Below are positions 24,202 through 51,058 of a DNA stretch of 64,000 bases, piece by piece. Both the position numbers and the translations under genes were made by a program. The stretch's first letter is position 1. The number at the start of each line of letters is the position of its first letter. A model generated the notes under the pieces. The model had not been told where the DNA came from, made no database searches, and saw nothing but the letters and a program-made list of their open reading frames with translations. Origin of the DNA: Azospirillaceae bacterium (GTDB lineage Bacteria > Pseudomonadota > Alphaproteobacteria > Azospirillales > Azospirillaceae). The stretch lies in NCBI GenBank assembly GCA_028283825.1, contig JAPWJW010000001.1:1736001-1800000 (forward strand), written 5' to 3'.

Positions 24202-24449
24202 GTTTTTCTGTTCCTCAGGCGCCGGCAGGGCCGTCCGGCCCTTTGGCTATCCTCGTTTTGCAGTCCGCCTTCGGCTCCCCGCAAAACTCCGGCGGACGCG
24301 GTCGCGTCCTATGGTTTTTCTGTTCCTCAGGCGCCGGCAGGGCCGTCCGGCCCTTTGGCTATCCTCGTTTTGCAGTCCGCCTTCGGCTTCCCGCAAAACT
24401 CCGGCGGACGCGGTCGCGTCCTATGGTTTTTCTGTCCCAGGCGCCGGCA
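24202..24449 (+). repeat. Nested-hairpin element, copy A: 112-bp tandem array (two full units plus a partial third)
   Basis: Units at 24202-24313 and 24314-24425 differ at about one base; a third unit is truncated at about 24449. Each unit holds hairpin 2 (AGGGCC-GTCC-GGCCCT, 24227-24242), hairpin 3 (GTTTTGC/GCAAAAC, 24255-24261 with 24281-24287) and hairpin 4 (GGACGC-GGTC-GCGTCC, 24294-24309) of the dispersed family. Hairpins 1 and 5 are absent. The array starts at the stop codon of the binding-protein gene. It runs into the 3' end of the GGDEF-EAL gene, supplying that gene's stop codon (24421-24423) and last codons. Confidence 0.85.
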
Positions 24450-26544
24450 ATAAGGCCATCAGGTTGGCTTCCGGCATGGGTTTGCCCAGCAGGTAGCCCT
24501 GGATGATGTCGCAGCCGAGTTCGCGCAGGCAATCCAGCTGGGGTTCGGTCTCGATGCCTTCCGCGATGGTTTCCAGGCCCAGATGGTGGGCCATGGCGAT
24601 GACGGCGGCCACGATCTGGCGGCTGGCCTCGTCATGCGGCAGGCCATCGACGAAGGATTTGTCGATCTTCACATAGGTGGCCGCGAACTTGCGCAGGTAG
24701 GCCAGCGAGGAATAGCCGGTGCCGAAATCGTCGATGGCAAAGCGGAAACCGTTGGCGCGCAGTTCATGCACCGCCTGCAAATTGCCTTCCGCGTCGCCCA
24801 TCAGGGCGCTTTCGGTGATCTCCAGGGCGATATCGGCCGAGGTGCAGCCCTCCTCCTCCAGAATGCGCAGCAGGCGGTCGCCGCAACCGCCATCGCGCAA
24901 CTGCACGGCCGACAGGTTGACCGCCATCTTGAAGCCGGTCACGCCCCGGGCGCGGATGGCGCGCACGGTGCGGCAGGCGGTGCGGAACACCCAGTCGCCC
25001 AGCGGCACGATCAGGCCCGTCTCCTCCGCCACCGGGATGAAGCGGGCGGGCGACACCGGCGCCAGATCCTCCGGATGGCGCCAGCGCACCAACGCCTCCG
25101 CCCCCATCAGGGTACCGCCCAGGCCGCTGGGATCGGGCCGGTACTGCGGCTGGTAGACCAGGCTGAAGCCGTCGGTGTCGGCGCCCTGGCCGCTTCCAGT
25201 CCCCGTCCCTTCCAGCGAGACGCGCAGGCCTTCCTCGATCCAGGTGCGGTCACGCACGCGGTCGCCGATCTCCGGCGTGAAGAAATGATAGCGGTCGCGG
25301 CCCGCACTCTTGGCGGCATACAGCGCCACGTCGGCATGGCGCAGCAAGGTCTCCCACGTGTCGCCGTCGCCGGGCGCCACCGCCACGCCGATGGAACAGG
25401 CCAGCCGCACCTCCCCCCCGCCGGGCCCGTCCAGCAACAGCGGCTGCTGGAAGGCCGCGACCAGGCGGGCGGCCACCTGGCTGACGGTGGTGATGGCGCC
25501 GTCGCGGTCCATCATGTCGCTGCTGCCGGCCGCGGCCCCGCCGGTCAGGATGACCGCGAATTCATCCCCGCCCAGCCGAGCCACGGTATCGCCCGGCCGC
25601 ACCGTGCGGCGGATGCGTTCGCCCGCCGCGATCAGGGCGGCATCGCCGGCGGGATGGCCCCGCGTGTCGTTCAGCAGCTTGAAATGATCCAGGTCGATCA
25701 GCAGCAGGGCCATGGGCGCGCCCTCGCGCCGGCTGGCCGCCAGCGCCAGGCGCACGCGGCCGATCAGCAGGGTGCGGTTGGCCAGGCCGGTCAGCGGATC
25801 GTGGAAAGCCAGGTGGCGGCTGCGTTCCGCCGCCTCCTTCTTCTCCGTCAGGTCGCTGAAGACGGCGATGTGGTGGGTGATGTTGCCGGCATCATCGCGC
25901 AGCAGGGTGATGCGCAGCCATTCCGGATAGATCGTGCCGTCCTTGCGGCGGTTCCAGATTTCCCCGGCCCAGGTGCCCTCGTCCCGCAAGGACCGCCACA
26001 TGACGCGGTAATATTCGGGGCCCTGGCGGCCGGAATTCAGCATGCGCGGGTCGTGGCCCAGCACGTCGGCCGGGCTGTAACCGGAAATGTCGGTGAAGGC
26101 GCGGTTGACCAGGACGATGCGGTTGGCGGCGTCGGTGACGATGATGCCATCGACGCTGTGCTCTATCACCCGACCGGCCACGCGCAGGTCGCGGTTGGCC
26201 AGCGCCAGTTCGGCCGCCTGCGCCTCCGCCTGATGGCGCGCCTGTTCCAGTTCATGCGTGCGCTGGCGCACCAGGCCGCGCATCACCTCATGCCGGCGGA
26301 TGCGGCCATGGACAAAGGCCGCCAGGGTCAGGCCCGACACCACGCCCACCGCCACCAGCCCAGCCTCCAGCGCGCCGCCCATGCCGGTCTCGCGCCCCAG
26401 GTCGGCGGCGAACAGCCCCGTGAACGACAGCACGGCCAGGCTGGTCCCGGTCGCCAAGGGGGACCACCGCCGCCCCCTCGCCACCGGGGCCGCGAGCTCC
26501 GGAGACGGTGCCGGGTCGGAAGGATCATCGCCGGAAAGCAACAT
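24421..26544 (-). CDS. PAS-GGDEF-EAL cyclic-di-GMP signalling protein
   Basis: 707 residues. Two N-terminal membrane helices (LAVLSFTGLFAADLG; AGLVAVGVVSGLTLAAFVHG) lead to a short coiled coil, then a PAS domain (SVDGIIVTDAANRIVLVNRA). The diguanylate cyclase domain has an intact GGDEF (RLGGDEFAVI). The phosphodiesterase domain has an intact EAL (MGAEALVRWRHPE) and catalytic DDFGTGYSSLAYL. Both activities look possible. It is inner-membrane anchored. The start at 26544 is chosen; 26607 is also open. Its last eight codons and stop fall in the repeat array of copy A. Confidence 0.93.
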   Translation of the reverse strand: MLLSGDDPSDPAPSPELAAPVARGRRWSPLATGTSLAVLSFTGLFAADLGRETGMGGALEAGLVAVGVVSGLTLAAFVHGRIRRHEVMRGLVRQRTHELEQARHQAEAQAAELALANRDLRVAGRVIEHSVDGIIVTDAANRIVLVNRAFTDISGYSPADVLGHDPRMLNSGRQGPEYYRVMWRSLRDEGTWAGEIWNRRKDGTIYPEWLRITLLRDDAGNITHHIAVFSDLTEKKEAAERSRHLAFHDPLTGLANRTLLIGRVRLALAASRREGAPMALLLIDLDHFKLLNDTRGHPAGDAALIAAGERIRRTVRPGDTVARLGGDEFAVILTGGAAAGSSDMMDRDGAITTVSQVAARLVAAFQQPLLLDGPGGGEVRLACSIGVAVAPGDGDTWETLLRHADVALYAAKSAGRDRYHFFTPEIGDRVRDRTWIEEGLRVSLEGTGTGSGQGADTDGFSLVYQPQYRPDPSGLGGTLMGAEALVRWRHPEDLAPVSPARFIPVAEETGLIVPLGDWVFRTACRTVRAIRARGVTGFKMAVNLSAVQLRDGGCGDRLLRILEEEGCTSADIALEITESALMGDAEGNLQAVHELRANGFRFAIDDFGTGYSSLAYLRKFAATYVKIDKSFVDGLPHDEASRQIVAAVIAMAHHLGLETIAEGIETEPQLDCLRELGCDIIQGYLLGKPMPEANLMALLPAPGTEKP

Positions 26545-26958
26545 GGCGTTGGTTCCTGAAGGAAGAAGGGACACCAGCAGGCTGGGGGGATGAAGGCGAT
26601 TCTGCAAGCGGTGGGCCTGAAGGCAACGGGATCATTGGTCTGGAGAACGATGCGCTGGCCAGACCGTACGGGACAGACATGATGCGTCAAGCCCGGTGAT
26701 GAGGATTTGATCCAACGCAATCCGGCGACGATGCCGCCCAAGCGCTGAGAAAAGCTTAAGAAAACTGAAGCTTAGGTATTGCAAACCTTGGTTTGGCGTG
26801 AATGGGAATTCTGCAACTTTCCCTGAAACGTCATTGATGTCATTGCCTATTCCGGCTGGCTGTCTTGTTACCGCAACCCGCCGTCGGGCATGATAGCAGG
26901 AGAGCATCAAGGCGCGCCGGGCGGCCACGCCCGGACAGAATGACCCAAACGGGGTACC
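26545..26958. other. Intergenic region between divergent genes
   Basis: About 410 bp, AT-richer than average around 26740-26830. It holds an imperfect AAGCTTAAG..GAAGCTTA repeat and presumably both promoters. No gene is supported here. Confidence 0.5.
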
Positions 26959-28983
26959 ATGGCGGCAGAACAAGATTCCCTGGGTTCCGACCTGGGACCG
27001 ATCGACCTGGGCGGCCGGGCCGAGATCCAGCCGGGGGCCCCCCTGCCCGCCTTCGACACGCCGGGCGGCCGCGCCTATCTGTGCCACCGCGCCCGGGAAA
27101 AGAAGACGGAACTGTTCGCCATCGTCTGCGACCGGTCGGTGCCGCCCCGCATCGACGCGATGAGCAGCTTTCGCGCCATCGACAACAACAACCTGCTGCA
27201 CCTCATGGATTGGGGCGTGGTGGACTGGTCGCCGGAGAATCGGCGCCGCTTCGTCTGCGTGTTCGAACGGCCGTCCGGCCGCCGCATCATGGAACGCCTG
27301 GACGATGTGATCGAGGGTGTGGCCGACGACGCCCTGCTGCGGGTGGTGATGCCGCAGCTGGCCACCGTGCTGCGCGACATCGCCCAGCGCAGCCTCATCT
27401 GCGGCGCGCTGAACCCCACCAACCTGTTCATCCGGGAATCGGCCGCCGCCGCCGTGGTGCTGGGCGACTGCGTCAGCCTGCCGCCGGGGTACGCCCAGCC
27501 GCTGATGTTCGAGCCGCTGGAACGCGCGCTGGCCGACCGCAACGGCCGGGGCAACGGCACCATCGCCGACGATCTGTTCGCGCTGGGCGTCACCCTGCTG
27601 ACCCTGTACCTGGGCCGCGCCCCGGCGCGCGGCATGGATGAGCAGAGCCTGCTGCAGGCCCGCATGGACCGGGGCACCTACGCCACGCTGACGGCCGGCG
27701 TGCGCGTGCCGCAGTCGCTGGTGGAACCGCTGCGCGGGCTGATCACCGACGACCCCCGCCAGCGCTGGACCCTGAACGACCTGGACATGTGGATGCAGGG
27801 CCGGCGGCTCAGCCCCAAGCAGGCGCAGTTGCCCAAGCGGGCGCCCCGCCCGCTGGAATTCCAGGGCAAGGAGATCTGGCACGTCCGCGGGGCGGCCTGG
27901 GCCTTTTCCAAGGCGCCCATCGCCGCCGCCCAGATCATCGAGCGCGGCGACCTGGACCGCTGGCTGCGCCGGTCGCTGAACGATGAGGCGAGGGCCGACA
28001 GCGTGACCAACGCCATCCGCAGCGCCACTTCCGGCGGCCGCGCCTCCAACATGGAGGAACGGCTGGTGGCGCGGGTGTGCACCGCCCTCGATCCCACGGC
28101 GCCCCTGCGCTACAAGGGCCGCGCCATCATGCCCGACGGCTTTGGCAGCGCGCTGGCGGAAGGCATCGCCAATGGCGAGGGCGGACAGGCCGTGGCGGAG
28201 ATGATCACCGGCCAGCTGCCGGCCTTCTGGATCAGCGTCCAGGCCGAATACCGGCCGGAACAAGTATTGCTGATCCACCAGTTCGATGCCGTCCGGGCGG
28301 TGCTGGAGAATACCAGCCCCGGATTCGGCATCGAACGCGCGCTTTATTCCCTGAACCAGATGGCGCCCTGCTACAGCCCGACGGTGGCGGACTGGTACGC
28401 CCTGACCCTGGGCGACCTGATGGCGGCACTGGACGCCGCGGAGACCGGCGGCACCACCGGCCGCGACCCCATGGACCGGCACGTGGCCGCCTTTATCGCC
28501 ACCCGCAACCCCAAGCTGAACGAGCGCCTGCTGGCCACCCTGGCGGCGGAGTCGGCCCGGCGGCCGGTGGGCGTGCTGGCCATCCTGGCCGACACCCAGC
28601 GCCGCGCCGGGCCGCCCAAGGTGCCAGGCCTGGCAACGTGGATGACCGGCATCCTGGAGCCATCCTTCAAGCGGTTCCGCAATCTGCGCAAACGCGAAGA
28701 GGTGCGGCAGGCCGCCCAGAAGGCCGCGCGGGAGGGTGTGCTGGACGCCCTGCTCAGCATCGTGGACGATCCCAAGGCCCTGACCCAGGACCATCACGGC
28801 TTCATCGACGCCATGCGCAAGCATGAGGGGCTGACCGCCCGCATCGGCAAGATCGAGGATACGCTGGGCGATCGTAGCGAGATCGCGGCCTCAAAAGGCA
28901 AGCGCGTGGCCGCCATGGTGGCCAGCGGCATCTCCCTGGCCGGGTTGGCCGTGATCGTCACCTTGATGGCGGGGCTGAAGTGA
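26959..28983 (+). CDS. Degenerate kinase-like protein with C-terminal membrane anchor
   Basis: 674 residues. The first about 290 resemble a protein-kinase fold that has lost catalysis. SLICGALNPTNLFIRE sits where HxDLKPxN is expected, with no catalytic Asp. The DFG position reads LGDC. Subdomain IX is recognisable (DDLFALGVTLLTLYLGRAP). The remaining helical region has no domain I can name. A terminal helix (VAAMVASGISLAGLAVIVTLMAGL) suggests tail anchoring with the bulk in the cytoplasm. The stop overlaps the next gene region, so the two are likely co-transcribed. A scaffold or receiver role is inference only. Confidence 0.65.
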   Translation: MAAEQDSLGSDLGPIDLGGRAEIQPGAPLPAFDTPGGRAYLCHRAREKKTELFAIVCDRSVPPRIDAMSSFRAIDNNNLLHLMDWGVVDWSPENRRRFVCVFERPSGRRIMERLDDVIEGVADDALLRVVMPQLATVLRDIAQRSLICGALNPTNLFIRESAAAAVVLGDCVSLPPGYAQPLMFEPLERALADRNGRGNGTIADDLFALGVTLLTLYLGRAPARGMDEQSLLQARMDRGTYATLTAGVRVPQSLVEPLRGLITDDPRQRWTLNDLDMWMQGRRLSPKQAQLPKRAPRPLEFQGKEIWHVRGAAWAFSKAPIAAAQIIERGDLDRWLRRSLNDEARADSVTNAIRSATSGGRASNMEERLVARVCTALDPTAPLRYKGRAIMPDGFGSALAEGIANGEGGQAVAEMITGQLPAFWISVQAEYRPEQVLLIHQFDAVRAVLENTSPGFGIERALYSLNQMAPCYSPTVADWYALTLGDLMAALDAAETGGTTGRDPMDRHVAAFIATRNPKLNERLLATLAAESARRPVGVLAILADTQRRAGPPKVPGLATWMTGILEPSFKRFRNLRKREEVRQAAQKAAREGVLDALLSIVDDPKALTQDHHGFIDAMRKHEGLTARIGKIEDTLGDRSEIAASKGKRVAAMVASGISLAGLAVIVTLMAGLK

Positions 28984-28997
28984 GCCAGGGTGGTATC

Positions 28998-29550
28998 ATG
29001 AATCGCGCCGCCCCTTCCCACCGACGGAGTTACGGCAGCCTGCTGGCCGTGGCCGTGCTGCTGCTGCCGCTGGGGGCCCTGGTCATGCCCACCACCGTGC
29101 TGGGCGTCGTCGGCATGATCCCAACCCTGGTCGCCCTGATCGTGGACCGCGATCCGGACAAGCCGGCGGCCGTGACGGTGGGCGCGCTCAACATCTGTGG
29201 CGTCATGCCCTTCTGCATCCAGCTGTGGCAGCACGGGCATACCATGGAGTACGCCTCCGGCCTGCTGGTGCAGCCGGTGACCTGGCTGGTGATGTATTCC
29301 GCCGCCGGTGTGGGCTGGCTGCTGTACTTCGGCATCCCGCCGCTGGTCGCCGGCTGGTCCGTCGCCCGCGACCAGGCCCGCCATACGCGAGTTGGAGGAC
29401 CAGCGCCAGAAACTGGTGGAGGAATGGGGGGTGGAGGTCAGCGGCAAGGGCCTGAAGCCCGAACCCGTCCTGGACGCCGACGGCCTGCCGACGGAAGCGC
29501 CGGACCCGCTGGCCGAAGCCGTCGATCCCGACACACCGCCGGCCGCGTGA
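28998..29550 (+). pseudogene. Small membrane protein paired with the kinase-like gene, frame broken near 29382
   Basis: The N-terminal frame encodes about four hydrophobic segments (LLAVAVLLLPLGALVMPTTV; VTWLVMYSAAGVGWLLYFG). The natural ending, a coiled segment and acidic tail (IRELEDQRQKLVEEWG onward), continues in another frame. Removing one C at about 29382 joins them as VARDQARIRELEDQ, giving about 183 residues. As written, the first frame reads on with atypical composition to about 29759. AGGGTGG precedes the ATG at 28998, and a GTG at 28980 overlapping the upstream stop is an alternative start. It may be a sequencing error rather than a dead gene. Function unknown. Confidence 0.6.
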
Positions 29551-29572
29551 GCCAACTCCGTATAATGCGCGT

Positions 29573-29729
29573 GGCATTTGATCGTAACCTCTCAAATGCC
29601 CCCTCAAACGCCGGGCGCCAGCATCCGCTGGCTTGGGCTTCCTCAGTTTTCAGTCCGCTACGCTCCCCGAAAACTTCCGGCGGCCGCGGTCGCGGCCTAC
29701 AGCGGCACGAGTCAAAATTTCGTGCCGCT
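29573..29729 (+). repeat. Nested-hairpin element, copy B
   Basis: Five stems in order: GGCATTTGA/TCAAATGCC (29573-29581, 29592-29600); GCCAGC-ATCC-GCTGGC (29617-29632); AGTTTTC/GAAAACT (29645-29651, 29669-29675); GGCCGC-GGTC-GCGGCC (29682-29697); AGCGGCACGA/TCGTGCCGCT (29701-29710, 29720-29729). It lies 22 bp after the stop of the kinase-partner gene. Confidence 0.88.
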
Positions 29730-29774
29730 GGTATAAACATCCGCAATCCCGCCTTTTGAGACTGGCCTGCCCTC

Positions 29775-30566
29775 ATGACCCCATCCCGCCTCCGCGCCCT
29801 TGCCGCCCTTGTCCTACTGGTCCTGGCGACCACCCTGCCCGTGCGGGGTTGGGCGCAACAGCCGCCGCAGAAATACGGGTTCGAGGTCGTGCATATTTAT
29901 GCCCACGACCGCCAGGCCTTCACGGAGGGCCTCTTCTACCTGAACGGCTTTTTGTATGAGAGCACGGGGCTGGAGGGCCGGTCGGACATCCGCAAGGTGG
30001 CGCTGGAGACCGGCCAGGTGGTGCAGACCCAGACCCTGGCGCCGCAGTATTTCGGCGAGGGCATCGTCAACTGGAAGGACCGGCTGGTCCAGCTGACCTA
30101 CCGCACCCAGGTGGGGTTCGTGTACGGCCTCGGGGATTTCAAGCAGCACGCCACCTTCCAGTATCCTGGCGAAGGCTGGTCCCTGACCCAGGACGGCCAC
30201 CGCCTGATCATGAGCGACGGCACGCCGCAACTGCGCTTCCTGGATCCGGAGACGCTGAAGGAAACCGGCCGCCTGACCGTCACCGACAATGGCTATCCCA
30301 TCCGCAACCTGAATGAGCTGGAGTTTGTGAAGGGCGAGATCCTGGCCAACATCTGGCAGACCAGCCTGATCGCCCGCATCGATCCCGCCACCGGCAATGT
30401 CACCGGCTGGATCGACCTGGCGGGCCTGGTCAAGATGTCGGGCGCCGGGCCCGATGCCGACAACGTGCTGAACGGCATCGCCTACGACGCCAAGGGCGAC
30501 CGCCTGTTCGTCACCGGCAAGCGCTGGCCCAAGCTGTTCGAGATCAAGCTGGTGCCGCTGAAGTAA
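29775..30566 (+). CDS. Glutaminyl-peptide cyclotransferase (plant/bacterial beta-propeller type)
   Basis: 263 residues with a signal peptide (LAALVLLVLATTLPVRGWAQ), so periplasmic. Family motifs are clear (FTEGLFYLNGFLYESTGLEG; YGEGWSLTQDG-like PGEGWSLTQDG; LNELEFVKGEILANIWQTS; VLNGIAYD). The enzyme converts N-terminal Gln to pyroglutamate on exported peptides. The length is typical. Repeat copies B and C flank the gene on both sides. Confidence 0.93.
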   Translation: MTPSRLRALAALVLLVLATTLPVRGWAQQPPQKYGFEVVHIYAHDRQAFTEGLFYLNGFLYESTGLEGRSDIRKVALETGQVVQTQTLAPQYFGEGIVNWKDRLVQLTYRTQVGFVYGLGDFKQHATFQYPGEGWSLTQDGHRLIMSDGTPQLRFLDPETLKETGRLTVTDNGYPIRNLNELEFVKGEILANIWQTSLIARIDPATGNVTGWIDLAGLVKMSGAGPDADNVLNGIAYDAKGDRLFVTGKRWPKLFEIKLVPLK

Positions 30567-30574
30567 TAATGCGC

Positions 30575-30726
30575 GCGGCGTTTGTTCAAACGCCGCCCCT
30601 CAGGCGCCGGGCGCCAGCATCCGCTGGCTTGGGCTTCCTCGCTTTCCAGTCCACTCCGTTCCCCGGAAAGCTCCGGCGGACGCGGTCGCGTCCTACAGCG
30701 GCACGAATCAGAATTTCGTGCCGCTG
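30575..30726 (+). repeat. Nested-hairpin element, copy C
   Basis: Stems: GCGGCGTTTG/CAAACGCCGC (30575-30584, 30587-30596); GCCAGC-ATCC-GCTGGC (30613-30628); GCTTTCC/GGAAAGC (30641-30647, 30665-30671); GGACGC-GGTC-GCGTCC (30678-30693); AGCGGCACGAA/TTCGTGCCGCT (30697-30707, 30715-30725). It fills the gap between convergent stops at 30566 and 30734. Confidence 0.88.
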
Positions 30727-30733
30727 GCGTCCA

Positions 30734-31219
30734 TCAGCCTTCGCCCAGGCTGGCCGACAGCTGGTGGACCCGGTCGCGCAGGTCGGCCAGGTCGGCCAGG
30801 GGCATGGACAGGCGGCACAGCATGGCGCCGGGGATGGCCAGGGCCTTTTCCCGCAATTCCCACGCCGCCGGCGTCAAATCCACCAGCACCCGGCGTTCGT
30901 CCGCCGTGTCGCGGCGGCGCGCCACCAGGCCGGCCCCCTCCATCCGTTTCAGCAGGGGTGTGAGGGTGCCGGAATCCAGGTCCAGCCGGCCGCCCAGTTC
31001 ACCCACGGTGACGGGCGCCCCCTCCCACAACACCATCAGCACCAGGTATTGGGAATATGTGAGGCCCAGCGCGTCCAGCATGGGGCGGTAAGCGCGGGTG
31101 ATGCGGTTGGTCGCCTGGTAAAGGGCGAAGCACAGCTGCCGGTCCAGCTCCAGCGGGTTGATGCCCTCCACACCCTCTTGGGCGACACCGTCTTCGGGCT
31201 GGGGTGCGGAACCGGTCAT
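30734..31219 (-). CDS. OhrR-like MarR-family peroxide-sensing regulator
   Basis: About 161 residues. The N-terminal LDRQLCFALYQATNRITRAY carries the single reactive Cys typical of OhrR, which senses organic hydroperoxides. The winged helix follows (LTYSQYLVLMVLWEG; LDLDSGTLTPLLKRMEGAGL; DERRVLVDLTPA). The start is uncertain: 31219 has a GAAGG site, while 31252 and a TTG at 31282 are also open. No ohr peroxidase gene is adjacent, so its target lies elsewhere or is the gene itself. Confidence 0.82.
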   Translation of the reverse strand: MTGSAPQPEDGVAQEGVEGINPLELDRQLCFALYQATNRITRAYRPMLDALGLTYSQYLVLMVLWEGAPVTVGELGGRLDLDSGTLTPLLKRMEGAGLVARRRDTADERRVLVDLTPAAWELREKALAIPGAMLCRLSMPLADLADLRDRVHQLSASLGEG

Positions 31220-31312
31220 GCCGCCTTCACCGTCAAATGCGAAATCCTTCATGCCGGAATAGGGGCAGACCTTGGGCGCCAAGGCAATCCGCCATTTCAG
31301 GGGCCGGGGCCG

Positions 31313-37572: not shown

Positions 37573-37585
37573 ACTTATGCTCACC

Positions 37586-37743
37586 GCATTTGATCGTAGC
37601 TGCTCAAATGCCCCTCATGTGCCGGGCGCTGACATCCGTCAGCTTGGCTAATCCTCGATTTCCAGTCCGCTATCGCTCCCCAGAAATCTCCGGCGGCCGC
37701 AGTCGCGGCCTACGGCGGCATGAAGCTTTGCCTCATGCCGCCG
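37586..37743 (+). repeat. Nested-hairpin element, copy D
   Basis: Stems: GCATTTGA/TCAAATGC (37586-37593, 37604-37611); GCTGAC-ATCC-GTCAGC (37628-37643); GATTTC/GAAATC (37657-37662, 37683-37688); GGCCGC-AGTC-GCGGCC (37695-37710); CGGCGGCATGA/TCATGCCGCCG (37713-37723, 37733-37743). It abuts the stop codon of the TonB receptor (37744-37746). Confidence 0.88.
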
Positions 37744-40680
37744 CTAAAACTCACACGTCAGGCCCCACAGGATGGTGCGGCCGCTGGAGGTGTTCACCAG
37801 GATGCGGCGGGCCGTCAGGTCGGTGAACTGCACAATGTGCTGGTCGGTCAGGTTCAGGCCCTCCACCGTCGCCTTCAGATGCCGGTTGATGTTGTAGTGG
37901 GCGGAGACGTCGATGTTGTTGGTGGGCTCGAACCCCTCGCCCACATTGCCGTTGCTGCCGATGCTGCTGAGGTATTGGCCGCGATAGGCTTCCGAGACGC
38001 GCACGCCCCAGCTGTCGGTCTCATAATACAGGGTGGCGTTGGCGGAGAAGCGCGACAGGTTGGTCAGGGGCAGGTTCACCGACTTTCCGCCGATGAGGGC
38101 CGCCGAACTGCCGTCGGCGAAGGTGCCGTTGGCGACCATGCCCAGATGGTTGAAGGGTTCCGGCAGGAAGTCGAAGTCGCGCTGGGCGGCCACCTCCACC
38201 CCCTTGATGCTGGCGCCGCTGACATTCACCGGCTGGGTGACGTTGTAGAGGATGGTCCCCGTCTGTCCCGGCAACAGGAAGGAGGTGGGGTAGCCCGTCT
38301 CCGAATACGGTTCCTGCACCGTGGTGGAACTGATGAAGGAGTTCAGCTTCTTGTAAAAGGCGCCGACGGACAGGAAACCCACCTTGCCGTCGTAATATTC
38401 CAGCGAGCCTTCCACCGCGTCGGCGGTGAAGGGCTTAAGGTTGGGATTGCCGATGGTCAGGCTGCCGCCGAAGGGGGCGGTGGTGATGGTGCCGGCGGCG
38501 GCCAGGTCCGACAGGGCCGGGCGGCTGATGTTACGGTCGGCGCTGACGCGGGCCACCAGGTCGGGTTCCAGGAACACGGCGACGTTGGCCGCCGGCAGCA
38601 CGCCGCTGTAGGTGTGCTGCACCGACACCGGCGTCAGACCGCTGCCGGAATTGACCGAGCCGGCGGAGGTCAGGTCGGTGCTGTAATACCGCACGCCGGC
38701 GTTGGCCATCACCCGGTGGTCCCAGACATTGGTGTCCAGGTCATACTGCACGAAGCCGGCCATCGTCTCTTCGGTCACGTGATAGTCGGACCCCGGCGAC
38801 AGATAGGCGGTGGACATGATGTTCCGCGTCTGGCCGATCAGGTTATAGACGCCGTTCACGTCGCCGACGATGTAGGGCACGTTGGTGTCATAGGGCACCA
38901 GGTACTTCAGGTTGGCCGGCAGCACCTTGTCGTCCGGCACGTTGTAGAAGACCTTGTTGTTGTACTGCGCGCCCTGGTCCTTGAAATTCTTGTATTCAAA
39001 GCCCGCCTTGATGCTTGAGGCGTCATTCAGGGCGTATTCGCCGTCGAACTTGCCGTTGGTGTAGGAGTTCACGATCTTGTTGGCCTGGGTGTCCAGGCGC
39101 ATCAGCTTCCACAACGACGGGTCGGCAGTGTTGAAGTCATAGGTGCTGGTCGGCATGGTGGTGCGGTCGTCGAAGGCGATGCCCTGGTTCTTGGATTCCA
39201 GGAATACCTTGTCGAAGTACGGCAGCTCATAGTCCGAGCGCGAATACCCCACCATGCCGCTGAGCTTCAGCCGGTCCGTCACCTGGTCGGAACCGTGCAG
39301 CACCGCCTGGTAGAATTCCGTGCTGTCGCTTTCGGTGTTGTACTCATCGCGCATGTCCACGCCGGTGTAATGCGCCGCCACCAGCGAATTGCCCTGGATG
39401 ACGGCGGATTGCAGCACCTGCGTGCCCGAGATGTTGCCGGTCAGGGCATTGGTGCCGCCGGCGGCGATGGAATAGTCCTGGCGGTCGTTGGTCAGGCGGC
39501 TGTACAGCGCGTCGAACCCCAGCTTCAGGCCGTTGTCGGGTTCGTACTGCAGGGCCATCGTGCTGCCCAGGCGGGTGCGGTGGTCGTACCAGGTGGAATA
39601 GCTGTCGGCCTGGGGCGCGAAGATGGTGCCGGATTCCAGCTTGGCGGCATCGGCGGCGCTGACACCCGGGCCGATGTTGGCGGCGTTGACTTTGATGGCG
39701 CCCCAGCCCCAGTTGCGGTAGCCGTACTCATTGCTGTCGTTGATGCTGTAGGCGACGGACACCAGGGCGCCGAAGTCGCCCCAGCGGTCGGACAGCAGGC
39801 CGACGATGCGCGGCGTCACGCTGTCGGTGTTGCTGTTGTTCTGCCCCTTGGCCGACAGCACCGCCTTGAAGCCCGGATAGTCGAAGGGCTTGGCGGTGCT
39901 GAGTTGCACGGTGCCGCCGATGCCGCCCTCATCCTGTTCGGCGGCGTAGGATTTCTGCACCGTCACCCGGTCGAACAGTTCCGAGGCGAACAGGCTGTAG
40001 TCGAAGCTGCGGGTGCGGCTGACGCCGCCGCGGTTGTCCATGCCCGACGCCGTGTTGCCCAGCACCTCCATCCCGTTCAACTGGGTGCGGGTGAAATCGG
40101 GCCCCAGGCCGCGCAGGGTGATCTGCCGGCCCTCGCCGGAATCGCGGTTGATGGTGACGCCGGCGATACGCTGCAAGGATTCCGCCAGGTTAAGGTCGGG
40201 AAATGCGGCGATATCTTCCGCCACGATCACGTCCTCGGCGATCACCGCCTCGCGTTTGATGGCCTGGGCCTGCGCCAGGCTTTCGTGGAAGCCGCTGACC
40301 ACCACCTCCTCCACCGGCGGCGGCGGTTCGTCGCCGCCGGGCAGGCGGTCGGCGCGGGGGCCGGCCTTCTTTTCCGCCAGTTGCAGCACCACCACCGTGC
40401 CGTCGTCGGACGACACCACCAGGGGCGTGCCCTGCAACAGGGTAGCCAGCGCCTTATGGCGGTCGATCTCGCCATGAATGGCCTGGGTGGTGATGCCCGC
40501 CAGTTGCCCCGCCGGTGCCACGATCTGGATGCCCGCCTGCTTGGCGAACATGGGAATGGCGCTGACCGCCGGCTGGGCCGGCAGGTCGAAGCTGCGCGTC
40601 TGCGCCATCGCCGGCCCACCCAAGGCGATGATGATGGACGCGGCGCCGCACAGCAGCGCCGGACGCAAGGATTTGAACAT
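37744..40680 (-). CDS. TonB-dependent receptor with N-terminal STN signalling domain
   Basis: 978 residues. A signal peptide (LLCGAASIIIALGGPAMAQ) is followed by an STN domain (about 30-105; FDLPAQPAVSAIPMFAKQAG), used to talk to a FecR-type regulator. The plug follows (FPDLNLAESLQRIAGVTINR; RQITLRGLGPDFTRTQLNGM), then a 22-strand barrel ending in Phe (LWGLTCEF). It imports a siderophore or other large nutrient through the outer membrane. The start at 40680 has a GGGGGA site. With the FecR and FecI genes upstream it makes a cell-surface signalling system. Confidence 0.95.
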   Translation of the reverse strand: MFKSLRPALLCGAASIIIALGGPAMAQTRSFDLPAQPAVSAIPMFAKQAGIQIVAPAGQLAGITTQAIHGEIDRHKALATLLQGTPLVVSSDDGTVVVLQLAEKKAGPRADRLPGGDEPPPPVEEVVVSGFHESLAQAQAIKREAVIAEDVIVAEDIAAFPDLNLAESLQRIAGVTINRDSGEGRQITLRGLGPDFTRTQLNGMEVLGNTASGMDNRGGVSRTRSFDYSLFASELFDRVTVQKSYAAEQDEGGIGGTVQLSTAKPFDYPGFKAVLSAKGQNNSNTDSVTPRIVGLLSDRWGDFGALVSVAYSINDSNEYGYRNWGWGAIKVNAANIGPGVSAADAAKLESGTIFAPQADSYSTWYDHRTRLGSTMALQYEPDNGLKLGFDALYSRLTNDRQDYSIAAGGTNALTGNISGTQVLQSAVIQGNSLVAAHYTGVDMRDEYNTESDSTEFYQAVLHGSDQVTDRLKLSGMVGYSRSDYELPYFDKVFLESKNQGIAFDDRTTMPTSTYDFNTADPSLWKLMRLDTQANKIVNSYTNGKFDGEYALNDASSIKAGFEYKNFKDQGAQYNNKVFYNVPDDKVLPANLKYLVPYDTNVPYIVGDVNGVYNLIGQTRNIMSTAYLSPGSDYHVTEETMAGFVQYDLDTNVWDHRVMANAGVRYYSTDLTSAGSVNSGSGLTPVSVQHTYSGVLPAANVAVFLEPDLVARVSADRNISRPALSDLAAAGTITTAPFGGSLTIGNPNLKPFTADAVEGSLEYYDGKVGFLSVGAFYKKLNSFISSTTVQEPYSETGYPTSFLLPGQTGTILYNVTQPVNVSGASIKGVEVAAQRDFDFLPEPFNHLGMVANGTFADGSSAALIGGKSVNLPLTNLSRFSANATLYYETDSWGVRVSEAYRGQYLSSIGSNGNVGEGFEPTNNIDVSAHYNINRHLKATVEGLNLTDQHIVQFTDLTARRILVNTSSGRTILWGLTCEF

Positions 40681-43541: not shown

Positions 43542-43552
43542 GCATTGATAGT

Positions 43553-43568
43553 TTCCAATAGGAAACAA
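43553..43568. promoter_or_regulatory. Palindromic LysR site before the exported-protein pair
   Basis: GTTTCCAATAGGAAAC, arms GTTTCC/GGAAAC. It is a close match to the site at 42621-42636 and lies 103 bp upstream of the SnoaL-like gene. Confidence 0.65.
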
Positions 43569-43670
43569 TGTTTTCATTATTGCGTTTATTATCAAACAAT
43601 CCTCGCCGGGGTACGGTTTGCCCAGATCGAAACGGGCACCGGCCCGTTGCCCCCGCGAAGGATCAAGGCG

Positions 43671-44150: not shown

Positions 44151-44168
44151 GCCCGCCCGAGAGAGATC

Positions 44169-44759
44169 ATGAAAATCGTCAACACCCTGCTGGTGGCCGG
44201 CCTGCTGGCTTTCGGCACCCAGGCCCATGCGCAGGACGTGAAGGTCGCCGGCATCGACCATGTCGGTATCACCGTGCCCGACCTGCGGCAGGCCGAGGAA
44301 TTCTTCTCATCCACCTTCGGCTGCGTGCCCGTCACCCACATCGGCCCCTTCCCCGTGGGTACTTCCCTGTCGCCGGATCGCCGGCAGGCCGTGGCGCCCC
44401 GCGCGACCAGCCTGTCGCTGGCCATGCTCCGTTGCGGCACCGGGTCCAACATCGAACTGTTCGCGTATAAGGACTCGACCGGCTCGACCGTCATCCCCAA
44501 TAACGAGGATCTGGGGCAGTCGCACATCGCCTTCTATACCGACGACGTGAAGGCCGGTGTCGCGGCGCTGAAGGCCAAGGGCCTGCTCATCATCGGCGAG
44601 CCCATCACCATGCCCAGTGGCGACACGGCGGGCGAGACCTGGGTGCATTTCCTGTCGCCCTGGGGGGCGGAGATGGAACTGGTCGGCTATCCCAACGGCA
44701 AGGGGTATGAGAAGACCGCCAAGCTGAAGCTCTGGAACGCCAAGCACCCCGCCGATTGA
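44169..44759 (+). CDS. Exported VOC (glyoxalase-fold) protein
   Basis: 196 residues with a signal peptide (IVNTLLVAGLLAFGTQAHAQ). The VOC fold is clear (VAGIDHVGITVPDLRQAEEF; GQSHIAFYTDDVKAGVAALK; LSPWGAEMELVGYPNGKGYE). His and Glu at the usual metal positions are present (DHVGI, SHIAF, MELVG). Periplasmic VOC proteins of this kind have no assigned reaction. It is the second gene of the LysR-linked pair. Repeat copy E begins 15 bp after its stop. Confidence 0.83.
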   Translation: MKIVNTLLVAGLLAFGTQAHAQDVKVAGIDHVGITVPDLRQAEEFFSSTFGCVPVTHIGPFPVGTSLSPDRRQAVAPRATSLSLAMLRCGTGSNIELFAYKDSTGSTVIPNNEDLGQSHIAFYTDDVKAGVAALKAKGLLIIGEPITMPSGDTAGETWVHFLSPWGAEMELVGYPNGKGYEKTAKLKLWNAKHPAD

Positions 44760-44774
44760 CCTCCTGGTACGTGC

Positions 44775-44936
44775 GGCATTTGAACGCGACCGTTCAAATG
44801 CCCCCTCACGCGCCGGGCGGCAGACATCCGTCTGCCTTGGCTTATCCTCGATTTCCAGTCCGCTTGCGGCTCCCCGGAAATCTCCGGCGGACGCCGTCGC
44901 GTCCTACAGCGGCACGATCCAAAATCTCGTGCCGCT
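44775..44936 (+). repeat. Nested-hairpin element, copy E (most complete)
   Basis: Stems: GGCATTTGAACG/CGTTCAAATGCC (44775-44786, 44791-44802); GGCAGAC-ATCC-GTCTGCC (44819-44836); GATTTCC/GGAAATC (44850-44856, 44876-44882) with an inner CCGC/GCGG; GGACGC-CGTC-GCGTCC (44889-44904); AGCGGCACGA/TCGTGCCGCT (44908-44917, 44927-44936). It lies between convergent VOC and eda genes. Confidence 0.9.
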
Positions 44937-44946
44937 AGAATGAGAC

Positions 44947-44988
44947 AAAAAAAGCCCCGACCGGTGTTCAGACCGATCGGGGCTTTTG
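44947..44988 (-). terminator. Bidirectional terminator after eda
   Basis: The stem AAAAGCCCCGA..TCGGGGCTTTT has T-runs on both strands. It lies 13 bp beyond the eda stop and next to repeat copy E. Confidence 0.85.
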
Positions 44989-45001
44989 TTTTGGAAAATG
45001 C

Positions 45002-45646
45002 TTACTTGCCCAGCGACGAAGCCTCACGCGCCAGCTTGGTGATACCGGCCCAATCCTTGGCCGCCACCAGATCCGCCGGGGTCAGCCAGGATCCGCCGAC
45101 GCAGGCCACGTTGGGCTGGGCCAGGTAGTCGGGTGCGGTCTTCACGGTGATGCCGCCGGTGGGGCAGAAGGTGACGTTGGCCAGGGGCGAGGCCAGCGAC
45201 TTGATCAGTTTCAGGCCGCCCACGGCCTCGGCCGGGAACAGCTTCACATGCCGCAGGCCCCGGGCCTGAAGGGCCATCACCTCCGACGGGGTGGCGGTGC
45301 CGGGCAGGAAGGGCACGCCCTTGGCCAGCACCTCATCCAGCAGGGCGGGATAGCAGCCGGGGCTGACGATGAACTTGGCACCGGCGTCGCGCACGCGGCC
45401 CACCTGGTCCGGCGTCACCACCGTGCCCGCACCGACCACGGCGTCGGGCAATGCGGCGGCCACCTTCTCCATCGCGGCCAGGGCGGCCTCGGTCCGCAAG
45501 GTGATTTCCAGTACCCGCACGCCGCCTTCCAGCAACGCTTCCGCCAACGGCAGGGCGTCTTCCACCTTGTCGATGATCAGGACGGGGACGACGGGGCCCA
45601 GGGCCAGGATTTCACCGACGTTCAGGGGCTTGGTCTGCGAACTCAT
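45002..45646 (-). CDS. eda: 2-keto-3-deoxy-6-phosphogluconate aldolase
   Basis: 214 residues. The Schiff-base Lys lies in HVKLFPAE and the acid/base Glu in [19 protein letters not shown] and FCPTGGI complete the family pattern. It splits KDPG into pyruvate and glyceraldehyde-3-phosphate, the last step of the Entner-Doudoroff pathway in the cytoplasm. Its start overlaps the edd stop as ATGA, so translation is coupled. A strong terminator follows. Confidence 0.96.
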
Positions 45647-47481
45647 GCGAAATCCTCTCCGAAACTGTGGGCGCCTTCCTCGGCGCCGGTCACATGCGCC
45701 CGCATGCCCCCGAACAGGCTGCGACCGGTCCCCCAGGTGTTGCCGGTCAGGTCGGGGGTGACGGGTTCGCGGGCGGCGAACTCATCGGCATCGACCAGGA
45801 TGTCCAGCGTCCCGGCCTCACCATCCAGGCGGACGATGTCGCCGGTGCGCACCCGCGCCAATGAGCCGCCCTTCAGCGCCTCCGGCGTCAGGTGGATGGC
45901 GGCCGGCACTTTGCCCGAGGCGCCGGACATGCGGCCGTCGGTGACCAGCGCCACCTTGAAGCCCTTGTCCTGCAACACGCCCAGCTGCGGCGTCAGCTTG
46001 TGCAATTCCGGCATGCCGTTGGCGGCGGGGCCCTGGAAGCGCAGCACGGCGATGAAGTCGCGCTCCAGCTCACCGCGCTTGAAGGCGGCCAGCACATCGT
46101 CCTGGTCGTCGAACACGATGGCCGGCGCCTCGACGATGCGATGCTGCGGCTTCACGGCCGAGACCTTGATGATGGCGCGGCCGGCATTGCCGGTCAGCAG
46201 GCGGATGCCGCCCGACGGGTCGAACGGATCGCTGGCCGGGCGCAGGATGCTGGTATCGGCGCTGGCGGGCGTGCCGGGACGCCAGGTGGCTTTGCCGTCC
46301 TTCAGCCAGGCCTCGTGGCGATAGGCGTCCAGGCCCTGGCCCAGTTCGCCATCGGCCACGGTGGTGACGTCGCCGTGCAGCAGGCCGGCGTCCAGCAGGG
46401 TGCTGATCAGGAACTGCAAGCCGCCGGCGGCGTGGAAATGGTTCACGTCGGCAACGCCGTTGGGATAGACGCGGGCCAGCAAGGGCACCGCCCCCGACAG
46501 GTCGCTGAAATCCTGCCAATCAATGCGAATGCCGGCGGCGCGCGCCATGGCGACCAGGTGCAGGGTGTGGTTGGTCGACCCGCCGGTGGCCAGCAAGCCC
46601 ACGATGGCGTTGACGATGCTGCGCTCATCCACCAGGCGGCCGATGGGCGTGTAGTTGCCGGCCTGATCCGTCAGCTGGGCCACGCGGTGGGTGGCGGCCA
46701 CGGTCAGGGCGTCGCGCAACTCGGTGTTGGGATTGATGAAGGAAGATCCGGGCAGGTGCAGGCCCATGATCTCCATCAGCATCTGGTTGGAATTGGCCGT
46801 GCCGTAGAAGGTGCAGGTGCCCGGCGAATGGTAGGATTTGGACTCCGCCTCCAGCAAATCGTCGCGGGTGGCCTTGCCCTCCGCGTACAACTGGCGTACC
46901 CGGGCCTTTTCCGGGTTGGACAGGCCGGACGGCATGGGGCCGGCGGGCACGAAGATGGCCGGCAGGTAGCCGAAGGTCAGCGCGCCGATCAGCAGGCCCG
47001 GGACGATCTTGTCGCACACGCCCAGGTACAGGGCGGCGTCGAACATGTCGTGCGACAGGGCGATGGCGGTGGATTGGGCGATGACATCGCGGGAGAACAG
47101 CGACAGTTCCATGCCGTCGCGGCCCTGGGTGACACCGTCGCACATGGCGGGCACGCCGCCGGCGAACTGGGCCACCACGCCCGCCTCATGCGCCGCCTGA
47201 CGGATGAGGGCGGGGAAACGCTCGAACGGCTGATGGGCCGACAGCATGTCGTTATAGGCGGACACGATGGCGATGTTGGATTTGCGGCCAGCCGACAGGG
47301 CCGCCTTGTCGTCCAGGGCGCAGCCGGCGAAACCGTGGGCCAGGTTGCCACAGCCCAGCGCGCCACGGCGCGGGTTCTGGCCCTTCTGGGCGTCCAGGCG
47401 CTTCAGGTAAAGGGCGCGGCTCTGGGCGCTGCGCTCAACGATACGGTCGGTGACCCGCCGCAAGGCGTCGTGTAAGGCCAT
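45643..47481 (-). CDS. edd: Phosphogluconate dehydratase
   Basis: 612 residues of the IlvD/Edd family. The iron-sulphur ligands are in place ([30 protein letters not shown]). The substrate loop ([13 protein letters not shown]) and C-terminal [20 protein letters not shown] are typical. It dehydrates 6-phosphogluconate to KDPG. The ATG at 47481 follows GGGAGGA; the upstream ATG-like start at 47499 is not needed. It is coupled to eda; zwf lies 104 bp upstream. Confidence 0.96.
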
Positions 47482-47500
47482 GGGGATCCTCCCTGGCAAG

Positions 47501-47548
47501 GCGTGAAGCAGGCGTCACGCGGACTGGGGCGATGCGGCACCCCAGTCC
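47501..47548 (-). other. Hairpins in the zwf-edd gap
   Basis: GCGTGA/TCACGC (47501-47506 with 47515-47520) and GGACTGGGG/CCCCAGTCC (47521-47529 with 47540-47548). There is no U-run, so these are more likely mRNA-processing or stability structures than a terminator. Confidence 0.5.
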
Positions 47549-47585
47549 CCGCGGCAGTAAAATCAACTCAAGGCCCCAGGCCGGT

Positions 47586-49058
<1,473 letters not shown>

Positions 49059-49262
49059 GATGGCGCCTTGGCTTTTGGTTTCCCAGGGATGGCTGGAGCG
49101 CCATCCACCCGTTATCAATTATGCGGTTATTTCACTACCACAAATCCCCGGAAGCGCCACCGGAAAATCACCCCCGATGTAACGGCAAGGGCGACTTTCC
49201 GGTAATTCCGTAACATGACAGCCCTGCGATGCAAGGCCGCCCGGGGATGCCCGCCCTTGGGG

Positions 49263-50777
49263 TCAGGCCTTCAGGCCGCCCATCAGCAGGTACTTCACCT
49301 CCAGGTAATCCTCGATCCCGTACTTGGAACCTTCGCGGCCCTGGCCGCTCTGCTTCACGCCGCCGAAGGGCGCCACCTCGGTGGACAGAATGCCCTCATT
49401 GATGGCGACCATGCCGTATTCCAGCGCCTCCGCCACCCGCCAGACGCGGCCGATGTCGCGGCTGTAGAAATAGGCAGCCAGGCCGAATTCAGTGTCGTTG
49501 GCCATGTGGATGGCCTCCGCCTCATCCTTGAAGCGGAACAGCGGGGCCACGGGGCCGAACGTCTCCTCCCGCGCCACCACCATCTCCGGCGTCACGTCCA
49601 GCAGGATGGTGGGCTCGAAGAAGTTGCCGCCCAGGGCGTGGCGATGGCCGCCCATGGCGACGCGGGCCCCCTTCTCCACCGCGTCGGCCACATGGCGTTC
49701 CGCCTTCTCCACCCCAGCGCCGTTGATCAGCGGGCCGGTGGTGATGTCCTTCTCCGCCCCGTTGCCGACGCGCAGGCGACCTACCGCCTCCGCCAGGCGG
49801 GCGGCGAAGGCCTCATACACACCGTCCTGCACCAGCAGGCGGTTGGCGCAGACGCAGGTCTGGCCGGCATTGCGGTATTTGGAGGCCATGGCCCCCTCCA
49901 CCGCCGCGTCCAGGTCGGCGTCGTCGAACACGATGAAGGGGGCGTTGCCGCCCAGTTCCAGCGACAGCTTCTTCAGCGTGTCGGCGCTCTGCTTCATCAG
50001 CAGCTTGCCCACGGGCGTGGAGCCGGTGAAGGACAGCTTGCGCACGATTGCGTTGGACGTCAGCTCACCGCCAATGGGCTTGGGATGACCGGTGACGACG
50101 TTCAGCACACCGGCCGGCACGCCGGCCCGTTCCGCCAGCACGGCCAGCGCCAGGGCACTGTAGGGCGTGACCTCCGACGGGCGCACCACGATGGGGCAGC
50201 CGGCGGCCAGGGCGGGGCCCACCTTGCGGGTGATCATGGCGATGGGGAAGTTCCAGGGCGTGATGGCGGCCACCACGCCGATGGGCTCCTTCGTCACCAC
50301 GATGCGCTTGTCGTTGGCGAAGCTGGGGATGGTATCGCCATAGACGCGCCGGCCTTCCTCCGCGAACCAATCGATGAAGCTGGCGCCGTAGGCAACCTCG
50401 CCCTTCGCCTCGGCCAGGGGCTTGCCCTGCTCCGCCGTCATGATGCGACCCAGATCGTCCTGGGCAGCCATGATCAGGTCGTACCAGCGGCGCAGGACCA
50501 CGGCGCGATCCTTGGCGGTGCGGGCGCGCCAGGCACCCCAGGCGGCGTTGGCGGAATCGATGGCGCGCGCGGTTTCAGCGGCACCCATAGCCGGAATGGT
50601 GCCCAGGATCTCCCCCGTCGCCGGGTTGTCCACATCGATGGTCCCGCCGTCATCGGCATCGACCCAGGCGCCGCCGACATAGGCCTGGTCGCGCAGCAGA
50701 TCATGGTCCGCCAGGCCCAGCTTGGTGGCGATGGCCGACAGCGAGGCGCGGGCGGAACGGGGGGCAGACGTATCCAT
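49263..50777 (-). CDS. gabD: NAD(P)-dependent aldehyde dehydrogenase, succinate-semialdehyde dehydrogenase type
   Basis: 504 residues. The catalytic Cys is in GQTCVCANRLLVQ and the general-base Glu in LELGGNAPFIVFDDADLDAA. The cofactor segment VVAAITPWNFPIAMITRKVG and the terminal EGSKYGIEDYLEVKYL match GabD-like enzymes. It would oxidise succinate semialdehyde to succinate; other short semialdehydes are possible. No gabT is adjacent. Single-gene unit. Confidence 0.88.
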   Translation of the reverse strand: MDTSAPRSARASLSAIATKLGLADHDLLRDQAYVGGAWVDADDGGTIDVDNPATGEILGTIPAMGAAETARAIDSANAAWGAWRARTAKDRAVVLRRWYDLIMAAQDDLGRIMTAEQGKPLAEAKGEVAYGASFIDWFAEEGRRVYGDTIPSFANDKRIVVTKEPIGVVAAITPWNFPIAMITRKVGPALAAGCPIVVRPSEVTPYSALALAVLAERAGVPAGVLNVVTGHPKPIGGELTSNAIVRKLSFTGSTPVGKLLMKQSADTLKKLSLELGGNAPFIVFDDADLDAAVEGAMASKYRNAGQTCVCANRLLVQDGVYEAFAARLAEAVGRLRVGNGAEKDITTGPLINGAGVEKAERHVADAVEKGARVAMGGHRHALGGNFFEPTILLDVTPEMVVAREETFGPVAPLFRFKDEAEAIHMANDTEFGLAAYFYSRDIGRVWRVAEALEYGMVAINEGILSTEVAPFGGVKQSGQGREGSKYGIEDYLEVKYLLMGGLKA

Positions 50778-50919
50778 GGGATGGGAACTCCGGTTTCAGG
50801 GAGGGCAGAACGTTTCTGGGGTTGTTAACCTTCTTACTAGATAGGTCGCCGGCCACACGGTTGAAAGCGGCCGGGGCGCCTCTGCCCATCCAACGAACAG
50901 GCGGGACAGTGTCTGGTTC

Positions 50920-51058
50920 CGTTAAAACGTGCCCTCAATCGCCGGGCGCCGGCATCCGCCGGCTTGGCTTCCTCGCCTTCCAGTCCACTCCGTTCCCCGG
51001 AAGGCTCCGGCGGCTGCGGTCGCAGCCTACACCGGCACGAGACCAATCTCGTGCCGGT
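50920..51058 (+). repeat. Nested-hairpin element, copy F
   Basis: Stems: GCCGGC-ATCC-GCCGGC (50948-50963); GCCTTCC/GGAAGGC (50975-50981, 50999-51005); GGCTGC-GGTC-GCAGCC (51012-51027); ACCGGCACGAGA/TCTCGTGCCGGT (51031-51042, 51047-51058). The first hairpin is degenerate. It lies 17 bp beyond the glmU stop. Confidence 0.85.

What the first reader, a model, noticed from the sequence alone, without database searches (positions are those of the whole stretch)
24202..51058. Dispersed family of five-hairpin elements with compensatory stem changes
Six sites (24202-24449, 29573-29729, 30575-30726, 37586-37743, 44775-44936, 50920-51058) share one architecture of up to five successive stems joined by constant linkers (GCGCCGGGCG, TTGG/CTTCCTCG, CTCCGGCGG, CCTACA). 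Stem sequences differ but stay paired. Hairpin 2: GCCAGC/GCTGGC, GCTGAC/GTCAGC, GCAGAC/GTCTGC, GCCGGC/GCCGGC, AGGGCC/GGCCCT, always with an RTCC loop. Hairpin 3: TTTTC/GAAAA, TTTCC/GGAAA, CTTCC/GGAAG, TTTGC/GCAAA; its inner stem also covaries (CCGC/GCGG against AC/GT). Hairpin 4: GGCCGC, GGACGC, GGCTGC, each with its complement. This is strong direct evidence for selection on a folded DNA or RNA. All copies have the same orientation whatever the flanking genes do. It fits no family I can name; it could be a non-autonomous mobile element, a multi-stem terminator or a small RNA.
Basis: seen in the sequence. Interest (0 to 1): 0.88.

Follow-up and report, generated by a model that had tools for sequence, protein, structure and literature searches.

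The report
Five-hairpin miniature transposon of Nitrospirillum
A short, apparently non-coding piece of jumping DNA with five hairpins has spread to hundreds of places, mostly just after genes, in a soil bacterium, and its hairpin arms change together so that the DNA stays foldable.

Summary
The six sites belong to a dispersed family in a Nitrospirillum genome: 318 exact core motifs, against 68-95 in six congeners and at most 3 for the reversed control. A full copy is about 168 bp, with short inverted ends (TACnnGCGGC), five hairpins, and "constant linkers" that partly pair around hairpins 2 and 3. It lies in a 3-bp TNA duplication: 18 of 45 copies exact, 6.5 expected, 0 of 20,000 shuffles as high. 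No element was detected in any aligned congener at 13 of 17 alignable sites. It is a MITE-type mobile element. It sits beside gene 3' ends and favours convergent pairs. Covariation is strong (171 double-change cells against 47.6 shuffled), but G.T cells do not exceed A.C mismatches (51 against 93), so the fold looks like DNA, not RNA. At one orthologous site in seven genomes hairpin 2 occurs as three fully paired stems between nearly unchanged linkers. Relatives occur in other genera. No Y1/RAYT transposase was found, T-runs are rare, and no credible Rfam match appeared. The mobilising enzyme was not found. Ten paper searches showed no description.

The parts
24212..24311 (+). tandem unit 1: core only (H2, closing helix, H3, H4), no H1/H5
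   Evidence: period 112 bp
24324..24423 (+). tandem unit 2: core only
29566..29733 (+). full five-hairpin element, TAA on both sides (29563-29565, 29734-29736)
   Evidence: 195.5 bits
30570..30729 (+). full element with shortened H1, between convergent genes; no element at the orthologous place in 5 congeners
37578..37746 (+). full element with worn ends; its end overlaps the stop codon (37744-37746) of the TonB receptor gene on the other strand
44768..44940 (+). full element, flanks TGG / TGA, between convergent genes; a terminator-like hairpin (read on the minus strand) lies just outside at 44950-44987
   Evidence: empty site in G002
50932..51059 (+). core plus H5, no clear H1
29574..29599 (+). 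hairpin 1 of the 29566 copy (GCATTTGA / TCAAATGC)
29617..29632 (+). hairpin 2 of the 29566 copy (GCCAGC ATCC GCTGGC)
29677..29697 (+). closing-helix 3' arm (CCGGC) and hairpin 4 (GGCCGC GGTC GCGGCC)
29701..29733 (+). hairpin 5 with right inverted end ...GCCGCTGGTA

Best explanation
It is a family of non-autonomous DNA transposons (MITE type), about 168 bp long. Shown: inverted ends TACnnGCGGC, a TNA target with a 3-bp duplication, empty orthologous sites, hundreds of copies, and hairpins conserved by Watson-Crick covariation. Inferred: a DDE transposase encoded elsewhere moves it in trans (IS5/IS1031-type is a guess from the TNA duplication, recalled); copies are found mainly just after stop codons because insertions elsewhere do harm; and the hairpins matter as folded DNA at some step of the element's own multiplication, so the arms are free to drift as long as they still pair.
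For: TSD: 18 of 45 full copies exact, shuffled mean 6.5, 0 of 20,000 as high; with TNA on both sides the middle base agrees in 18 of 23. Empty sites: of 19 sites tested (the window tandem counted as two) 17 had aligned flanks in at least one congener, and at 13 of these 17 no element was detected in any aligned congener; at two full copies of 168-169 bp (L018:8428, L022:14810) the own sequence was longer by exactly 171 bp in 5 of 8 comparisons, element plus 3 bp or nearly. Copy number: 318 core motifs, 86 H1 motifs with up to 2 mismatches against 0 in the control, 9 copies in 8 stretches of 20 kb placed without regard to hits. Context: 98 of 98 copies between genes, 47 of 98 in convergent gaps (88 of 543 gaps are convergent), 6 divergent; 102 of 139 neighbouring gene 3' ends lie within 25 bp. 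Covariation. G.T 51, A.C 93, other mismatch 98, Watson-Crick 4446, against G.T 92 of 1203 paired cells in 48 tRNA genes of this and other alphaproteobacterial loci.
Against: No autonomous partner was found: exact end pairs 0.8-3 kb apart gave one case in G000 (L064), which reads as a transposase gene inserted in a copy. Many copies lack one or both ends: of 105 nhmmer copies 35 were scored full, 11 H1 only, 17 H5 only and 42 neither. I saw no duplication by eye at core-only copies, so how they spread is unexplained. The copy upstream of obgE is present in every genome aligned there and is nearly unchanged in its linkers, more than a dead copy should be. The further-pair-types measure did not exceed shuffles.
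Confidence: 0.82

Rival explanations
1. About the stems only, and compatible with mobility: stems are swapped and kept paired by recombination or gene conversion between the hundreds of copies, or by copying one arm from the other during replication (template switching), not by selection on the fold.
For: At the obgE site H2 occurs as GCGGGC, GGCCAC and GCCGGC and H4 as GGCCCC and GGACGC, in combinations that do not go together, between linkers of 95-96% identity, in seven genomes, one of them seen in part. Hybrid and fused copies exist: L092, L093, L027, L100.
Against: Exchange explains swapping but not how the many paired stem types first arose (28 distinct H2 arms in 123 copies). Relatives in other genera keep the order of hairpins with unrelated H3-H5 stems.
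Confidence: 0.45
2. It is a host RNA element: a 3'-end mRNA stabiliser, terminator or small RNA.
For: Lies at gene 3' ends, often between convergent genes; compact multi-hairpin fold with a long-range closing helix in some single-sequence folds; an old copy just upstream of obgE keeps its linkers. On the reverse strand the 93 A.C cells would read as G.U against 51.
Against: No G.U preference on the forward strand; of the 93 A.C cells 20 come from one H3 pair and 8 from one H5 pair. TTTT in 4 of 92 and 1 of 92. No credible Rfam hit. Both orientations beside genes (16 same, 29 opposite).
Confidence: 0.12
3. It is a REP/BIME-type element moved by a RAYT (Y1/HUH) transposase.
For: Reverse complement of H4 reads GTAG followed by a palindrome in copies ending CCTAC; same 3'-end and convergent-gene location as REPs (PMC3733652, passages seen).
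Against: No PF01797 match in G000, while the control rings in 6 of 14 genomes. Copies without H5 end mostly CTAG, by eye, without the GTAG tag. A TNA duplication is not expected of HUH transposition (recalled).
Confidence: 0.05

Closest known systems
Bacterial MITEs (RUP, Correia/NEMIS)
   Same: short, intergenic, inverted ends, many copies (RUP: 107 bp, 108 copies; PMC2229807, section 5 part 1 read)
   Different: 3-bp TNA duplication instead of a TA target; five hairpins in a row with covarying stems; partner IS not found
REP/BIME with RAYT
   Same: palindromes near gene 3' ends, mostly convergent or unidirectional gaps (PMC3733652, passages)
   Different: no Y1 transposase found in the genome, no constant GTAG tag, inverted ends and TSD, 168 bp
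CGTC-tagged REPs
   Same: predominate in alphaproteobacteria; A. lipoferum is among the species listed in PMC3733652 (passages)
   Different: those are 8-9 bp stems with complementary A/T at the first two positions and a CGTC tag; I did not see this here (by eye)
CIR repeats (Caulobacter)
   Same: alphaproteobacterial intergenic repeats of about 110 bp with two folded arms (PMC2229807)
   Different: GANTC in the H5 end of only 26 of 45 full copies; five hairpins; sequences not compared
IS5-family (IS1031-type) insertion sequences
   Same: TNA target duplication (recalled from IS classification)
   Different: no such IS with these ends was found; IS5-family genes were not searched for

Membership tests
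MITE | terminal inverted repeats | tested here: met
   TACGCGCGGC / GCCGCTGGTA ends; end pattern TNATACNNGCGGC 77 hits in G000 against 9 in the reversed control; in the six congeners 22-32 against 6-21
MITE | target site duplication | tested here: met
   18 of 45 exact 3-mers, 0 of 20,000 shuffles as high
MITE | empty sites in relatives | tested here: met
   13 of 17 alignable sites have no detected element in any aligned congener
MITE | autonomous IS sharing the ends | tested here: inconclusive
   none with exact ends in G000; the congener list was cut off and its end pairs were not followed up
MITE | no coding capacity | not tested
   length and hairpins make coding unlikely; no dedicated test
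REP with RAYT | Y1 transposase (PF01797) present | tested here: not met
   no match in G000; control positive in 6 of 14 genomes
REP with RAYT | constant GTAG tag at the hairpin foot | tested here: not met
   copies without H5 mostly end CTAG, by eye
CIR repeat | conserved GANTC in a loop | tested here: inconclusive
   26 of 45 full copies have GANTC in the last 38 bases
IS630-type MITE (RUP, Correia) | TA duplication | tested here: not met
   duplication is 3 bp, TNA
intrinsic terminator | T-run after the stem | tested here: not met
   TTTT in 4 of 92 forward, 1 of 92 reverse
Rfam RNA family | covariance model match | tested here: not met
   only tRNAs in the window at gathering; over window 29500-30800, E up to 5, five matches all far below their gathering scores

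The most novel reading that the evidence does not exclude
The stems are rewritten wholesale at fixed chromosomal sites by a DNA process that replaces both arms of a hairpin together while leaving loop and linkers alone, so the element carries self-correcting palindromes that diversify fast and rarely lose pairing. This would be compensatory evolution without RNA function.
Probability: 0.2. Interest if true: 0.8.

Novelty: new variant of a known kind. Interest (0 to 1): 0.56.

Why it matters
Covariation is widely read as proof of a functional RNA. Here is a family with dense covariation, several Watson-Crick pair types at many positions and little wobble, in what looks like a DNA transposon. 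It gives a natural test set, including an orthologous site in seven genomes, for how hairpins in DNA keep both arms matched. It is also an unusual multi-hairpin MITE whose layout recurs in other genera.

Tried and rejected
Plasmid search with one copy: no match. Rfam at gathering and at E up to 5: nothing credible. Y1/RAYT search in G000: none; congeners were not searched for it. Autonomous copy by exact end pairs in G000: one candidate, L064, reads as a transposase gene inserted in H5 of a copy. Strand against local GC skew: no clear link (G>C stretches 29 minus, 20 plus; C>G stretches 23 minus, 26 plus). "Targets stop codons as such": 18 of 35 full copies abut a stop exactly, far above the share of stops among permitted TNA sites (9.7%). 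But stop TNA (507) and TNA within 40 bp downstream (489) are about equal in supply, while 28 of 35 copies lie within 40 bp of a stop, so the preference is for gene 3' ends, not clearly for the stop codon itself. The family-wide pattern had one N too many and finds only copies with 7-bp H2 stems; its counts are lower bounds. The tRNA control cannot give A.C counts, because ARAGORN marks only paired bases; only the G.T share can be compared. Gene calls come from my own codon-usage script, not from an annotation.

Rows dropped: one search used the best 117 of 150 aligned rows (153 matches) and skipped helices with under 70% letters or under 60% Watson-Crick cells (rows used: H1 79, P0 117, H2 114, H3 100, H3 inner 104, H4 115, H5 98). 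One search used 98 of 105 copies (score 40 or more); one search used 92 of 105 for the T-run count (score 60 or more), with ends extrapolated where a hairpin is missing. The alignment has 34 of the 35 full copies (one under 163 bases dropped) plus 2 window copies. In one search hairpin 2 was found in 123 of 137 copies and hairpin 4 in 115 of 137; that search takes the best-pairing stem near the expected place, counts G.T as paired, and so leans towards pairing. One search's full set is the 35 copies plus 10 from L078-L097, which were picked mostly by the H1 motif.

Full report
What is there. The genome (G000, 7.16 Mb, 5 contigs) belongs to Nitrospirillum: contig lengths tie the congeners G006 to N. 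viridazoti CBAmc and G004 to N. amazonense BR 11622, and the Obg protein is 98% identical to theirs. Exact counts of the core motif CTCANNCGCCGGGCG are 318 in G000 (160 forward, 158 reverse) and 68-95 in the other six genomes of the genus, with 0-3 for the reversed motif. The hairpin-1 motif, with up to 2 mismatches, occurs 86 times, control 0. Eight 20-kb stretches at places set without regard to hits hold 9 copies, which would be about 400 in the genome.

Anatomy. Full copies are about 168 bp: TACGCGCGGC - H1 - CCCTCA - nnCGCCGG - H2 (loop RTCC) - TTGG and CCTC linkers - H3 with a small inner stem - CCGGC - H4 (loop mostly NGTC) - TACA - H5 - GCCGCTGGTA. The GCCGG and CCGGC linkers pair in some single-sequence folds and at 97.2% of cells in the alignment, although that helix hardly varies and so says little. 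Of 105 copies in 860 kb, 35 were scored with both ends, 11 with H1 only, 17 with H5 only and 42 with neither. Smaller forms with the same ends exist: a 44-bp single hairpin flanked by TTA on both sides (L079) and a short form with other inner parts (L078). Tandem arrays with a 112-bp period occur in the window and in G004, and a 143-bp one in G002.

Mobility. With 45 full copies the three bases on the left equal the three on the right in 18, against 6.5 in shuffles and 0 of 20,000 shuffles as high; 34 of 45 have TNA on the left, 28 on the right, and of the 23 with TNA on both sides the middle base agrees in 18. At 19 G000 sites compared with congeners (the window tandem counted as two), 2 had no aligned flanks. 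At 13 of the remaining 17 no element was detected in any aligned congener; at four of these 13 rows (the two tandem rows, L018:16957 and window:50920) at least one congener has longer sequence in place. The other four sites hold an element in at least one congener (L018:5433, L022:2128, L022:11728, L022:18642). At two full copies of 168-169 bp, L018:8428 and L022:14810, the own sequence is longer by exactly 171 bp in 5 of 8 comparisons (others 159, 173, 175). At L022:11728 the G004 element is in the opposite orientation.

Place. By my own gene of 98 copies lie between genes: 47 convergent, 45 tandem, 6 divergent, whereas 88 of 543 gaps are convergent. Among full copies 18 of 35 begin exactly at a stop codon and 28 of 35 lie within 40 bp of one. 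TNA sites within 40 bp downstream of stops are about as many as stop TNA sites, so the supported statement is preference for, or survival at, gene 3' ends.

Pairing. On 36 full copies 95.8% of cells pair; 171 cells have changes on both sides against 47.6 (sd 5.2) in shuffles; sliding partners by 1-3 columns gives 32-44%. Further standard pair types were not above shuffles (42 against 39.2; 72 of 500 as high), a result against the strongest reading; and related copies can exceed such shuffles without structure, as that tool warns. Of 123 copies in which H2 was found, 116 pair at all six positions with 28 different arms. In the wider set G.T cells are 51, A.C 93, other mismatches 98, Watson-Crick 4446. 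An RNA of the forward strand should tolerate G.U more than A.C; that is not seen. An RNA of the reverse strand would turn A.C into G.U, so this count leaves room for it, but 20 of the 93 come from one H3 pair and 8 from one H5 pair. The tRNA comparison gave 92 G.T in 1203 paired cells, 7.6%, against 1.1% (forward) or 2.0% (reverse reading) here. I conclude that pairing is most likely kept at the DNA level.

One site in seven genomes. Upstream of obgE the same insertion is found in G000, CBAmc, B4, BR 11622, BR 11880, G002 and (in part) G005. H2 has three versions and H4 two, all fully paired, in mixed combinations; H1 there is less regular, with unpaired bases in some rows (B4, G002), and B4 has an insertion in H3. 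Pairwise identity is 0.96 and 0.95 in the linkers, 0.67 in H2 arms and 0.84 in H4 arms; it is 0.98 in the left flank towards obgE, 0.45 in the adjoining right flank and 0.97 further right. Conserved linkers beside a diverged right flank mean either selection in place or frequent exchange with other copies; swapped stems fit exchange, or a two-arm rewriting process.

Beyond the genus. The first relatives search matched 14 of 40 genomes: all seven of the genus and seven outside it, these with E from 4e-4 to 2e-8. Elements with H1 - CCCTCA - nnCGCCGG - H2 (ATCC) - TTGG - H3 - H4 - H5 are in other genera of the family (g11: L101-L107; g12: L015, L016), though L103 has no H5. I folded seven of these nine: five hairpins stand out in L104, L106, L107, L015 and L016, while in L101 and L105 the lowest-energy fold merges H4 with other pairs. 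A core form is in Aerophototrophica crusticola (L114), the only hit outside Nitrospirillum among 80 named loci around obgE scanned with a strict regular expression (938 kb). A loosely similar layout is seen by eye in G034 of another family (L017). L108 looks like a chance match inside other sequence. H3-H5 sequences differ between genera while the order is kept.

What it is not. There is no Y1 transposase match in G000. TTTT follows the element in 4 of 92 copies and 1 of 92 on the other strand. The copy at 44768 lies beside a terminator-like hairpin whose sequence is also present at the empty site of G002. There is no credible Rfam match. In print: ten paper searches showed no description of this family; I saw their listings, the abstract and section 5 part 1 of PMC2229807, and passages only of PMC2267715, PMC3733652, PMC8266576 and PMC10969869. 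Subscription papers and ISfinder were not searched.

Verdict. A multi-hairpin MITE family, undescribed as far as these searches go, mobilised by an enzyme not yet identified. The unusual part is covariation that is nearly all Watson-Crick, and stem replacement at a fixed site.

Noticed in passing
L077:14778-17450: An IS66-family element (PF03050) sits inside an H1-bearing copy, with GCCTCATA repeated on both sides.
   Followed up: partly
L064:8471-10150: A transposase gene (PF05598, PF01609, PF13751; IS1182-like by recall) reads as inserted inside hairpin 5 of a copy; the hairpins may be landing sites for IS elements.
   Followed up: partly
L079 (G000:C5:88398-88441): A 44-bp single-hairpin element with the family ends and TTA on both sides; its middle resembles the end of the IS1182-like element of L064.
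   Followed up: no
window 24212-24423; L098; L099: Tandem arrays that repeat about 10 bp of upstream flank with each unit; the last unit is truncated in L098 and L099.
   Followed up: no
L027:14528-14759; L100: Fused inverted copies.
   Followed up: no
L022:11728 and L057:10217-10322: Orthologous gap carries elements in opposite orientation in two species.
   Followed up: no
G000 against congeners: The core motif is about three to five times more abundant in this species (318 against 68-95), which suggests a recent expansion.
   Followed up: no
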